Assembly (NCBI GenBank): GCA_947258985.1
Contig: CAMYKI010000029.1
Span: forward strand, 1 to 56,129
Direction of reading: 5' to 3'
Length of the DNA stretch: 56,129 nucleotides
Source of the DNA: an uncultured Acidimicrobiaceae bacterium
GTDB taxonomy: Bacteria > Actinomycetota > Acidimicrobiia > Spongiisociales > UBA5794
Shown here piece by piece: positions 37,623-39,016 of the stretch (its first letter is position 1; each line of letters starts with the position of its first letter). The notes beneath the pieces are model-generated. The model was not told the DNA's origin. It ran no database searches and saw only the letters and a program-made list of their open reading frames with translations. A program made the translations under genes and the position numbers.

Positions 37623-37668
37623 GTCTGGCGTACCTCAGCGCCGTATACGGCGCTGAGGTACGCCAGAC
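37623..37668. repeat. perfect 46-bp palindrome, copy A
   Basis: The two 23-base halves (GTCTGGCGTACCTCAGCGCC + GTA) are exact reverse complements with GTATAC at the centre. It begins 5 bases after the stop of the DAHP synthase gene and lies before tag. No T run follows on either strand. A second copy is at 48735-48780. Confidence 0.95.
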
Positions 37669-37672
37669 GCGA

Positions 37673-38752
37673 TTAGGGCCGGGAGTCGCCGAGGGCGCGC
37701 CTTTGCTCTGCCCGGCTGTGGGTCAGGACGAGGTTCATCAGGTTTTCGATGTACTCGCGGTCGACGCCGAGTGCGGCACCGTCGGCAACGGCTTCTTCGA
37801 TCAGCTCCTTCTCCCTCTCAGGAGATCTCATGTTCAGGCCCTTTACCGCCTTGATCTTGGCGATCTCGACGGAACTGTGCAGCCGTCTCGCCACCAGTTT
37901 GATGAGAGCCCGGTCCACGCGATCGATTTCGTCACGTAGTGACGGGATTCCCAAGCTGTCCATGAGCTTGGCAAACTCGGCCAGATCGAGCTGGCTGCCG
38001 TTGCCCGCCAACGATGACGACGGGTCGATATGGGCGGAGACAACAAGGCCATCTGCTCCGACCGATCGGCCGGCGAGAGCCAACGGTGCCAGCAAGTCGG
38101 CATCACCATTAGCGGGTGCCGGATCTATGACCACCGGCAGGTGCGACAGTCGCTGCACCACCGGAACTGCCGAGATGTCAATTGTGTCCGAAGTCCGGGG
38201 GTCAAAACCGCGGCTCCCTCGCTCACACAACACAACGTTGTTGTTGCCCTCGGCGAGGATGTACTCGGCAGCCATCAACCATTCGTCGACGGTCGCCGAC
38301 GGTCCCCGGTGCAGCAATATCGGCTTCAACGTCTTGCCGGCATCGCGCAGAAGCACGAAGTTCTGCATGTTGTCCGGCCCAACTTCAAGCATGTCGGTGT
38401 GGTCGGCAGCTTCCTCCACCATGCCGGGTTCGATGACCTCGGTGATGGTGGGAAGACCGCTCTCGAATCCGGCCTTCTCCAGATGCCAGAGGCCTTCCTG
38501 GCCAAGGCCCTTGAACGTGTATGGCGACTGCTCGGCACGGTAGGTACCGGCGCGCAACATCGAAGCTCCCGACTCCGCCAACGACATCGCGGTGTTGATA
38601 ACCTGCTCTTCGGTCTCAACGGCAATGGGGCCGGCGATAACCGGGTACGAGCCGTCGCCGAACCTGACGTTGCGAACGGCAACGACGGTCGTATCCACGT
38701 CCGGGCGACGGTGGCTCTTCAGTACCGGCTTGTTTTGTTTTGATTCGGTCAT
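37673..38752 (-). CDS. 3-deoxy-7-phosphoheptulonate synthase fused to chorismate mutase
   Basis: 359 residues. The N-terminal type I-beta/KDO8P-like DAHP synthase domain (about 25-265) shows YPVIAGPIAVETEEQV, LRAGTYRAEQSPYTFKGLG, ILLHRGPSATVDEWLMAAEY, NVVLCERGSRGFD and VSAHIDPSS. The C-terminal AroQ-type chorismate mutase (about 270-350) shows SLRDEIDRVDRALIKLVARR and KAVKGLNMRSPEREKELIEE. It commits carbon to aromatic amino acids and converts chorismate to prephenate. GGAGAA before ATG 38752 fixes the start. It is preceded by a Phe/Tyr leader peptide and attenuator. Confidence 0.92.
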   Translation of the reverse strand: MTESKQNKPVLKSHRRPDVDTTVVAVRNVRFGDGSYPVIAGPIAVETEEQVINTAMSLAESGASMLRAGTYRAEQSPYTFKGLGQEGLWHLEKAGFESGLPTITEVIEPGMVEEAADHTDMLEVGPDNMQNFVLLRDAGKTLKPILLHRGPSATVDEWLMAAEYILAEGNNNVVLCERGSRGFDPRTSDTIDISAVPVVQRLSHLPVVIDPAPANGDADLLAPLALAGRSVGADGLVVSAHIDPSSSLAGNGSQLDLAEFAKLMDSLGIPSLRDEIDRVDRALIKLVARRLHSSVEIAKIKAVKGLNMRSPEREKELIEEAVADGAALGVDREYIENLMNLVLTHSRAEQRRALGDSRP

Positions 38753-38789
38753 TGGCTTCTCCTGTGGCGGCGGCCCAGGCAAACAAAAA

Positions 38790-38813
38790 CCCGAAGCCGC
38801 TTTCGGCTTCGGG
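38790..38813 (-). terminator. attenuator terminator of the DAHP synthase-chorismate mutase gene
   Basis: On the minus strand CCCGAAGCCG-AAAG-CGGCTTCGGG forms a perfect 10-bp stem followed by TTTTTGTTTG, a textbook intrinsic terminator. It lies 27 bases downstream of the leader-peptide stop and 37 bases upstream of the enzyme's start, so it can only act as an attenuator. Its 5' arm and loop (GCCGAAAGC, 38799-38807) are also perfectly complementary to leader RNA at 38862-38870. Confidence 0.85.
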
Positions 38814-38839
38814 CGGTGAGTTGGTGATTGTCGGCTTGT

Positions 38840-38911
38840 CTAGCGCACACCCTCTGCCCGGGCCGAAAGCCCGGTAAAGAAGTAAGCGAAATAGAAGCCG
38901 TTGTTGTTCAT
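38840..38911 (-). CDS. Phe/Tyr-rich leader peptide
   Basis: A 23-codon ORF starting MNNNGFYFAYFFTG and ending EGVR. Residues 6-12 are F-Y-F-A-Y-F-F: six aromatic residues of seven. It lies directly upstream of the attenuator terminator. This matches the logic of pheL-type leader peptides, where ribosome stalling for lack of charged tRNA-Phe or tRNA-Tyr frees an RNA segment to form an antiterminator. That segment (GCTTTCGGC) is inside codons 14-17, a few codons after the aromatic run. A GC-rich hairpin (CCCCGG/CCGGGG, about 38926-38941) lies just before the start. Confidence 0.82.
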   Translation of the reverse strand: MNNNGFYFAYFFTGLSARAEGVR

Positions 38912-39016
38912 TCCCGGGCACCCTACCCCCGGTTGTCCGGGGCAGCAAGCGGCAGGGAACGATTGAGAGCAGCTGGGACGTTTGTCAGCCAGCGGCTTCG
39001 CCCTCACAATGGGGGC

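What the first reader, a model, noticed from the sequence alone, without database searches (positions are those of the whole stretch)
38790..38911. Complete Phe/Tyr attenuation system upstream of a DAHP synthase-chorismate mutase fusion in an actinobacterium
Seen directly: a 23-codon ORF with six aromatic codons in seven (F-Y-F-A-Y-F-F); a 10-bp terminator stem with a T-rich tail before the enzyme gene; and a 9-nt segment in the leader (GCTTTCGGC, 38862-38870) perfectly complementary to the terminator's 5' arm and loop (38799-38807). That segment lies a few codons after the aromatic run, where a stalled ribosome would leave it free. Known: this is the mechanism of pheL-type leaders in enterobacteria. 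Inference: Phe and/or Tyr starvation opens the gene. I am not aware of such a leader described for this fused enzyme in Acidimicrobiia-like organisms.
Basis: partly seen in the sequence, partly recalled or inferred. Interest (0 to 1): 0.78.

Follow-up and report, generated by a model that had tools for sequence, protein, structure and literature searches.

The report
Phe/Tyr attenuator before sole chorismate mutase
Just upstream of the only chorismate mutase gene found in an uncultured Acidimicrobiia genome lies a conserved leader with a run of phenylalanine and tyrosine codons, which is predicted to switch the gene on when those two amino acids run short, while the DAHP synthase half of the encoded enzyme has lost its metal-binding residues and is likely inactive.

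Summary
A 23-codon ORF (FYFAYFF run) is followed by a terminator before a DAHP synthase-chorismate mutase gene. The leader recurs before 78 of 87 such genes read in the order (32 of 34 genera). In 76 of 77 distinct leaders an antiterminator of at least 6 bp (median 12) starts 7-13 nt after the last aromatic codon. In a folding model the terminator's 5' strand is held (about 0.8) while a ribosome sits on the aromatic codons and is freed (0.24) three codons later; shuffled leaders show no such step. A TAnnnT hexamer lies 6-11 nt before a start codon in 76 of 77, so the mRNA is probably almost leaderless.

The DAHP synthase half has lost all four metal ligands, while six chorismate mutase residues are invariant (73 of 73 proteins). 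It is the only chorismate mutase found in the genome, beside a separate DAHP synthase. A second strong copy of the RNA occurs in 23 related genomes; the 13 fetched all precede pheS and have Phe codons, with Tyr in one.

The mechanism is known (pheL; C. glutamicum AroR). The RNA and target appear new. No expression data exist.

The parts
38943..38948 (-). -35-like hexamer TTGCTG
   Evidence: consensus match only, 17 nt from the -10
38920..38925 (-). -10-like hexamer TAGGGT, 8 nt before the ATG, so a nearly leaderless transcript is predicted
   Evidence: TAnnnT lies 6-11 nt before an in-frame start in 76 of 77 distinct leaders (5-12 nt searched, no background computed for that range); in the 5-9 nt range 61 of 77 against a background of 71 of 661 start-like codons
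38840..38911 (-). leader ORF, 23 codons, MNNNGFYFAYFFTGLSARAEGVR
   Evidence: leader present in 78 of 87 orthologous loci
38876..38896 (-). regulatory codons F-Y-F-A-Y-F-F
   Evidence: only 7-codon window with at least 6 Phe/Tyr among 97,931
38858..38874 (-). hairpin strand 1:strand 2 (CCGGGCU UUC GGCCCGG), directly after the last Phe codon
   Evidence: pairs counted on A2 (88.4% paired; weak covariation)
38856..38868 (-). strand 2 of the antiterminator, UUUCGGCCCGGGC
   Evidence: starts 7 nt after the last Phe codon
38801..38814 (-). strand 3, GCCCGAAGCCGAAA: pairs with strand 2 (antiterminator) or with strand 4 (terminator)
38790..38813 (-). intrinsic terminator, 10-bp stem, loop AAAG
   Evidence: 96.7% of cells paired over 76 sequences, 5 pairs changed on both sides
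38782..38789 (-). U-rich tract TTTTTGTT
37673..38752 (-). gene: degenerate type I-beta DAHP synthase domain (residues 28-263) fused to an AroQ-type chorismate mutase domain (272-350) with its catalytic residues
   Evidence: metal ligands C/H/E/D replaced by I43, P213, S239, G250

Best explanation
This is an RNA leader that likely works by ribosome-mediated transcription attenuation: a ribosome stalling at its phenylalanine or tyrosine codons would let the RNA form an antiterminator instead of the predicted terminator that stands before the gene. Predicted steps: RNA polymerase starts at or just before the leader ATG. When Phe-tRNA and Tyr-tRNA are plentiful, the ribosome runs through the aromatic codons, covers or passes strand 2, and strand 3 pairs with strand 4, ending transcription. 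When either is scarce, the ribosome halts with its front edge at or just short of strand 2. Strand 2 then captures strand 3 before strand 4 has been made, and polymerase reads on into the gene. The protein so controlled is, by sequence, a chorismate mutase carrying a DAHP synthase barrel stripped of its active site, so the step being dosed is likely chorismate to prephenate, the entry to Phe and Tyr but not Trp. That fits a leader with Phe and Tyr codons and no Trp codon. Shown directly: the leader, its conservation, the pairing potential, the covariation, the residue losses. Inferred: translation, stalling, termination, readthrough and response to amino acids.
For: Leader in 78 of 87 genes, 32 of 34 genera; 75 of 77 distinct leaders have both Phe and Tyr, none has Trp, in the eight codons up to the last aromatic. 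Antiterminator of at least 6 bp in 76 of 77. Folding model, 77 leaders: strand 3 captured about 0.80 with the A site one to six codons before the last aromatic codon, 0.75 on it, 0.24 three codons later, 0.18 at the stop; window 0.83 falling to 0.05. Shuffles (15 per leader): drop 0.51 observed against 0.02, 68 of 77 leaders with at most 1 of 15 reaching it; for the capture level alone 0.75 against 0.54, 51 of 77. Same fall, shifted by one codon, with footprints of +9 and +15 nt. Covariation of the terminator and of the antiterminator (cells changed on both sides 36 against 19.0, 0 of 500 shuffles). Loop nucleotides paired only in the antiterminator covary: 48 of 60 against 38.2, p = 0.0001. 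A related RNA before pheS carries Phe codons. Only one CM_2 match and no CM_1 match in the genome, and a separate DAHP synthase with its active-site residues, one Glu to Asp apart.
Against: No transcript, ribosome or growth data; these are uncultured MAGs. At equilibrium the full-length window RNA prefers the terminator at every stall position (0.83-0.91), so the switch must be kinetic. Nine of 87 genes lack the leader: four in one genus where the gene closely follows an upstream reading frame, and five in another where the codons are lost but a hairpin remains. In one search two of the covariation measures did not exceed shuffles (pairs changed on both sides 413/500; further types 495/500). 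The leaders are related to each other, and neither the shuffles nor the permutation test corrects for that. Some U-tracts are poor (7 of 77 with three or fewer T in 8).
Confidence: 0.88

Rival explanations
1. The leader acts mainly on translation: strand rearrangement exposes or hides the ribosome-binding site of the gene, and the hairpin is not an efficient terminator.
For: Some lineages have weak U-tracts (7 of 77 with three or fewer T in the 8 nt after the stem). A repeat of the terminator's 5' arm often lies between terminator and gene (40 of 76 share 6 nt or more, mean 5.86 against 4.47 in mononucleotide shuffles) and could pair with strand 4. In the window the shared 6 nt is GAAGCC, next to the Shine-Dalgarno-like GGAG.
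Against: 70 of 77 have four or more T in the 8 nt after the stem; the window has TTTTTGTT. No conserved pairing to the Shine-Dalgarno sequence was established.
Confidence: 0.08
2. A tRNA-sensing T-box or other metabolite riboswitch, with the peptide incidental.
For: An element that ends in a terminator before an amino-acid gene is the usual T-box position (recalled).
Against: No Rfam family reaches its gathering score anywhere in the window. The aromatic codons and their spacing to strand 2 are what is conserved.
Confidence: 0.01
3. The leader responds to phenylalanine only, as reported for C. glutamicum AroR, and the Tyr codons are tolerated.
For: Review PMC11802643 (passages read) says Tyr availability does not affect the AroR-controlled operon although its run is Phe-Tyr-Phe. 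The last aromatic codon is Phe in 72 of 77 leaders.
Against: 75 of 77 distinct leaders keep Tyr codons, while the pheS leaders have none in 12 of 13. In the window the model gives the same capture at Tyr codons as at the earlier Phe codons.
Confidence: 0.2
4. The DAHP synthase domain is active despite the substitutions, so the leader controls the first step of the shikimate pathway as in C. glutamicum.
For: The barrel fold is predicted intact and closest to Aeropyrum pernix DAHP synthase; NCBIfam names the family a bifunctional synthase. In three proteins of family f5 the site is complete, and 26 of 73 keep three of four ligands.
Against: In the window all four metal ligands and three of five PEP-contact residues differ (I43, P213, S239, G250; R72, D127, H148; ligand list from PMC6362186). 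A separate DAHP synthase of the same genome has CHDD and RKRKR.
Confidence: 0.05

Closest known systems
AroR-aroF attenuator of Corynebacterium glutamicum
   Same: Short leader with Phe-Tyr-Phe codons before a DAHP synthase gene in an actinobacterium, ribosome-mediated attenuation (PMC11802643, passages; PMC4046766, passages; the primary paper, Neshat et al. 2014, was not read).
   Different: Different class of the phylum; here the target is a chorismate mutase fused to a degenerate DAHP synthase; longer aromatic run; the two RNAs were not compared with each other here.
pheL-pheA and pheM-pheST attenuators of enterobacteria
   Same: Aromatic-codon leader, mutually exclusive antiterminator and terminator, and the same pair of targets: a chorismate mutase gene and pheST (attenuation of pheA by pheL and of pheST named in PMC11802643; the name pheM is recalled).
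   Different: The window matches no Rfam family at gathering score; Tyr codons as well as Phe; near-leaderless start predicted; the two loci here match one covariance model, so common descent is likely.
Ribosome-dependent leaders of other Actinobacteria (trp, ilvB, leuS, trpS)
   Same: Leader peptide plus terminator logic (PMC1262725, passages; Mtb ilvB1 in PMC13236596, passages; a C. glutamicum ilvBNC leader without ribosome-binding site is in the reference list of PMC4046766).

Membership tests
Ribosome-mediated transcription attenuator (trp/phe type) | short ORF rich in codons for the end product | tested here: met
Ribosome-mediated transcription attenuator (trp/phe type) | intrinsic terminator between leader and gene | tested here: met
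   (by sequence and fold; termination not measured)
Ribosome-mediated transcription attenuator (trp/phe type) | antiterminator mutually exclusive with the terminator, its first strand just beyond the regulatory codons | tested here: met
   (computed structures, not probed)
Ribosome-mediated transcription attenuator (trp/phe type) | expression rises when the cognate charged tRNA falls | not testable with these tools
   no expression data
Rfam RNA families (amino-acid leaders and T-box recalled to be among them) | match at or above the curated gathering score | tested here: not met
   0 of 4227 families in the whole window
C. glutamicum AroR leader | homologous leader RNA | not tested
   the AroR sequence was not fetched
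Active type I DAHP synthase | Cys-His-Glu-Asp metal ligands and PEP-binding Lys/Arg | tested here: not met
   window I-P-S-G; ligand list from PMC6362186
AroQ chorismate mutase | catalytic Arg, Arg, Lys, Arg, Glu, Gln | tested here: met
   R273 R290 K301 R313 E314 Q350 invariant in 73 of 73 (equivalence to E. coli numbering recalled); CM_2 62.7 bits

The most novel reading that the evidence does not exclude
One ancestral attenuator RNA arose in this order of Acidimicrobiia before the sole chorismate mutase gene, was copied in front of pheST in one family, and was retuned by codon change alone: Phe plus Tyr codons where the gene serves both amino acids, Phe codons where it charges tRNA-Phe. Meanwhile the DAHP synthase half of the controlled enzyme died in some lineages and survives as a non-catalytic regulatory partner of the chorismate mutase.
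Probability: 0.5. Interest if true: 0.72.

Novelty: new member of a known kind. Interest (0 to 1): 0.57.

Why it matters
It gives, across one order and with covariation, a complete predicted aromatic attenuator in a class of Actinomycetota for which one search found no paper (Acidimicrobi + attenuat + leader peptide, 0 papers in the open library). It puts chorismate mutase and pheST under one RNA family, the same pair that enterobacteria control by attenuation. And it shows that a gene which NCBIfam names bifunctional DAHP synthase/chorismate mutase can be a chorismate mutase with a dead synthase domain: of 73 distinct proteins 33 keep none of the four metal ligands, 11 keep one, 26 keep three and 3 keep four. 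That is a caution for pathway annotation and a good system for asking what a dead barrel does.

Tried and rejected
The idea that the terminator alone explains the conservation was rejected: loop positions unpaired in the terminator covary with strand 2. That test used only the 29 of 77 leaders that fit the motif searched, collapsed to 20 distinct combinations (48 leaders dropped); the three f5 members in it pair in only 0-1 of 3 positions. A wider spread of the RNA was looked for in 296 genomes of the phylum. Of the loci printed, four out-of-class hits (L226, L227, L228, L232) showed a terminator-like stem without a leader; for L229 the printed stretch missed the hit; L187 lies in the order and is a leader before a truncated gene. 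In one search, seven weaker class hits (L218-L224) did not look like leaders. A repeat after the terminator was counted but no role was settled. Covariation of the 1:2 hairpin is weak. One search read minus-strand loci on the wrong strand and was redone; one search crashed and was redone. One search counted 90 fused proteins, of which 17 were the same gene seen in two collections; one search recounts 73, and those numbers are used.

Full report
What is in the sequence. On the minus strand: TTGCTG (38948-38943), 17 nt, TAGGGT (38925-38920), 8 nt, then ATG (38911), a 23-codon ORF MNNNGFYFAYFFTGLSARAEGVR ending at 38840, a 10-bp stem (38813-38804 with 38799-38790), TTTTTGTT, and the gene start at 38752. 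The run FYFAYFF is the only 7-codon window with six or more Phe/Tyr among 97,931 stop-free windows of the six frames. No Rfam family matches anywhere in the window at gathering score.

Where it comes from. The window is contig 29 of a 3.6-Mb genome (92.9% complete). The nearest named records are Acidimicrobiia MAGs: the fused gene of JASJAS010000014.1 is 91% identical.

Conservation. The fused protein was searched in 198 genomes of the class and 138 of the order. The upstream DNA of 87 fused genes was read. A leader ORF with aromatic codons and a terminator-like hairpin is present in 78, in 32 of 34 genera (that output says 33 of 35 because one locus of genus g28 carries its own label). In each region the most aromatic short ORF was taken, so weak cases lean on the conserved FTG codons and hairpin as well: nine of the 77 distinct leaders have only two or three aromatic codons in the last eight. 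Missing: all four genes of one genus of the window's family (L012, L014, L057, L060), where the gene closely follows an upstream reading frame and, in the one genome tested (G105), the separate DAHP synthase is of type II; and five genes of one genus of family f6 (L030, L031, L086-L088), where the aromatic run has decayed and a hairpin remains. In the last eight codons up to the last aromatic, 75 of 77 leaders have both Phe and Tyr, two have Phe only, none has Trp.

The switch. The last aromatic codon is usually followed by ACCGGG. The 5' strand of the terminator (strand 3) can pair with strand 4 or with an upstream strand 2. With a ribosome placed one codon before the last aromatic, the minimum-energy fold of the RNA made so far has a 2:3 helix of at least 6 pairs in 76 of 77 leaders (median 12), beginning 7-13 nt after the last aromatic codon. 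In the window it is UUUCGGCCCGGGC with GCCCGAAGCCGAAA. The probability that strand 3 is held by upstream RNA before strand 4 is made was computed for every codon. The mean over 77 leaders is about 0.80 while the A site is one to six codons before the last aromatic, 0.75 on it, 0.24 three codons later and 0.18 at the stop codon. In the window it is 0.83 on the first five aromatic codons, 0.75 on the last, and 0.05 three codons later. The position of this fall moves by one codon when the assumed footprint changes by 3 nt. Shuffling the RNA between the last aromatic codon and the terminator removes the fall (0.51 observed, 0.02 shuffled), and in 68 of 77 leaders at most 1 of 15 shuffles reaches the observed fall; for the level at the last aromatic codon alone the contrast is smaller (0.75 against 0.54; 51 of 77). 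Without a ribosome, from the start codon, strand 3 is held 0.49 on average and 0.40 in the window. Against a simple equilibrium switch: once strand 4 exists, the window RNA prefers the terminator at all stall positions (0.83-0.91), although in families f3, f4 and f8 the mean terminator probability falls to 0.11, 0.14 and 0.24. The window's switch therefore has to be kinetic, decided before strand 4 is made.

Covariation. On 76 aligned leaders (77 become 76 distinct over the shorter stretch aligned) the terminator is paired in 96.7% of cells, with five pairs changed on both sides. The antiterminator is paired in 85.7% of cells; cells changed on both sides and the covariation score exceed all 500 shuffles, but the number of pairs changed on both sides and of further pair types do not. 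The 1:2 hairpin shows weak support. The most specific test concerns terminator-loop nucleotides, which pair only in the antiterminator: UUC with GAA, CUC with GAG, GUU with AAC, GAU with AUC in different genera or species. Over 20 distinct combinations from the 29 leaders that fit the motif searched, 48 of 60 positions pair against 38.2 when partners are dealt anew (p = 0.0001). Relatedness of the leaders is not corrected for in these tests.

Promoter. A TAnnnT hexamer lies 6-11 nt before an in-frame start codon in 76 of 77 distinct leaders (range searched 5-12). In the narrower range of 5-9 nt it is 61 of 77, where start-like codons in the same regions show it in 71 of 661; a hexamer matching TTGACA at three or more places lies 16-18 nt further up in 60 of those 61. 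The transcript is therefore predicted to begin at or within a few bases of the leader start codon.

What is regulated. Pfam finds DAHP_synth_1 (185 bits) and CM_2 (62.7 bits). Aligned to Aeropyrum pernix DAHP synthase, the window protein has I43, P213, S239 and G250 in place of the Cys, His, Glu and Asp metal ligands, R72, D127 and H148 in place of PEP-contact Lys, Arg and Lys, and E74-Q75 in place of the E4P-contact Arg-Thr (ligand and contact lists from PMC6362186, passages read). Of 73 distinct fused proteins, 3 keep all four metal ligands (family f5), 26 keep three, 11 keep one and 33 keep none; all 32 distinct ones labelled as the window's family keep none. Six chorismate mutase residues (R273, R290, K301, R313, E314, Q350) are invariant in 73 of 73; position 346 is Ser in 68. 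In the window's genome the fused gene holds the only CM_2 match and there is no CM_1 match. The genome has a second DAHP synthase with C, H, D and D at the ligand positions and all five PEP contacts (contig C17), one prephenate dehydratase match and no type II DAHP synthase match; at 92.9% completeness a missing gene cannot be excluded. The barrel is still predicted to fold: AlphaFold2 from six sequences gives mean pLDDT 80.9, nearest 1vs1. In M. tuberculosis a chorismate mutase is activated and made sensitive to Phe and Tyr by contact with a DAHP synthase (PMC7762937, passages). A non-catalytic partner role for the dead barrel is therefore plausible, but it is inference.

A second locus. A covariance model of the leader (R1) was run on 395 genomes of the class (listing capped). 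Besides the known loci the listing shows a second site of 30.6 bits or more in 23 genomes of the window's family, including G000 C19:8851-8943 at 58 bits. Thirteen of the 23 were fetched. All 13 are followed by pheS (51-100% identical to the L206 protein; L206 is tRNA-synt_2d); three of them (L205, L208, L217) show a further ORF that looks like pheT (by eye). Their leaders have one to three Phe codons up to the last aromatic, and no Tyr in 12 of 13. All 13 have TAnnnT 6-9 nt before the start. The mean capture of strand 3 falls from 0.80 at the last aromatic codon to 0.37 three codons later, but three of the 13 (L209, L210, L214) are still at 0.61-0.77 there. The ten not fetched were not checked for the gene that follows. 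In 296 genomes of the phylum (listing capped) no out-of-class hit exceeded 38.5 bits, and the four out-of-class hits whose site could be seen were terminators without a leader.

Known and new. The mechanism is that of pheL and of C. glutamicum AroR, a Phe-Tyr-Phe leader before aroF (PMC11802643 passages; PMC4046766 passages; primary paper not read). Predicted attenuators before aromatic operons, one with an aroA(I-beta)-aroQ fusion inside (Bacteroides thetaiotaomicron), are tabulated in PMC1173090 (passages). An early survey found no conserved RNA element before Phe or Tyr operons in the Actinobacteria it examined (PMC1262725 passages). The combination of Acidimicrobi, attenuat and leader peptide is held by no paper of the open library; the listings showed no title on such a case. 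The element is thus a new member of a known kind, with a new target and a second, retuned copy.

Noticed in passing
L089-L094 (G195, G186, G086, G013, G042, G148; families f2 and f3): Genes of about 690-720 aa fuse chorismate mutase, prephenate dehydratase (with an ACT match in L089) and DAHP synthase (Pfam run on two of the six, L089 and L092). Each has another aromatic leader ending YFG(A/V)-stop with a GGCGC-stop-GCGCC-like palindrome (shorter in L089) and a CACC-rich tail, and no obvious terminator by eye. PMC1173090 mentions a DAHP synthase pseudogene fused to aroQ-pheA in Shewanella oneidensis.
   Followed up: partly
G000 C19:8851-8943 (minus), L205: Second copy of the leader RNA in the window's own genome, upstream of pheS, with Phe codons and no Tyr.
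   Followed up: yes
between terminator and gene in many leaders; window 38789-38753: A repeat of part of the terminator's 5' arm (CCGGAG-like in many loci): 40 of 76 share 6 nt or more, mean 5.86 against 4.47 in shuffles; in the window it is GAAGCC by the ribosome-binding site. Function unknown; in several loci a small hairpin overlaps the ribosome-binding site of the gene (seen by eye).
   Followed up: partly
window 37623-37668: A perfect 46-base palindrome (GTCTGGCGTACCTCAGCGCCGTA and its complement) lies between the chorismate mutase gene and the methyladenine glycosylase gene (read).
   Followed up: no
L012, L014, L057, L060 (genus g6): Leader lost where the gene closely follows another reading frame; the one genome tested (G105) has a type II DAHP synthase and no second type I one.
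   Followed up: partly
L030, L031, L086-L088 (genus g19): Decayed leaders (for example MNKFPVSFRSVRSLWGSGS) keep a hairpin close to the gene start but no aromatic run.
   Followed up: no
L187 (G275 C97): A leader with FYAYFVF precedes a DAHP synthase-like gene that breaks off in the stretch held; not in the counts.
   Followed up: yes
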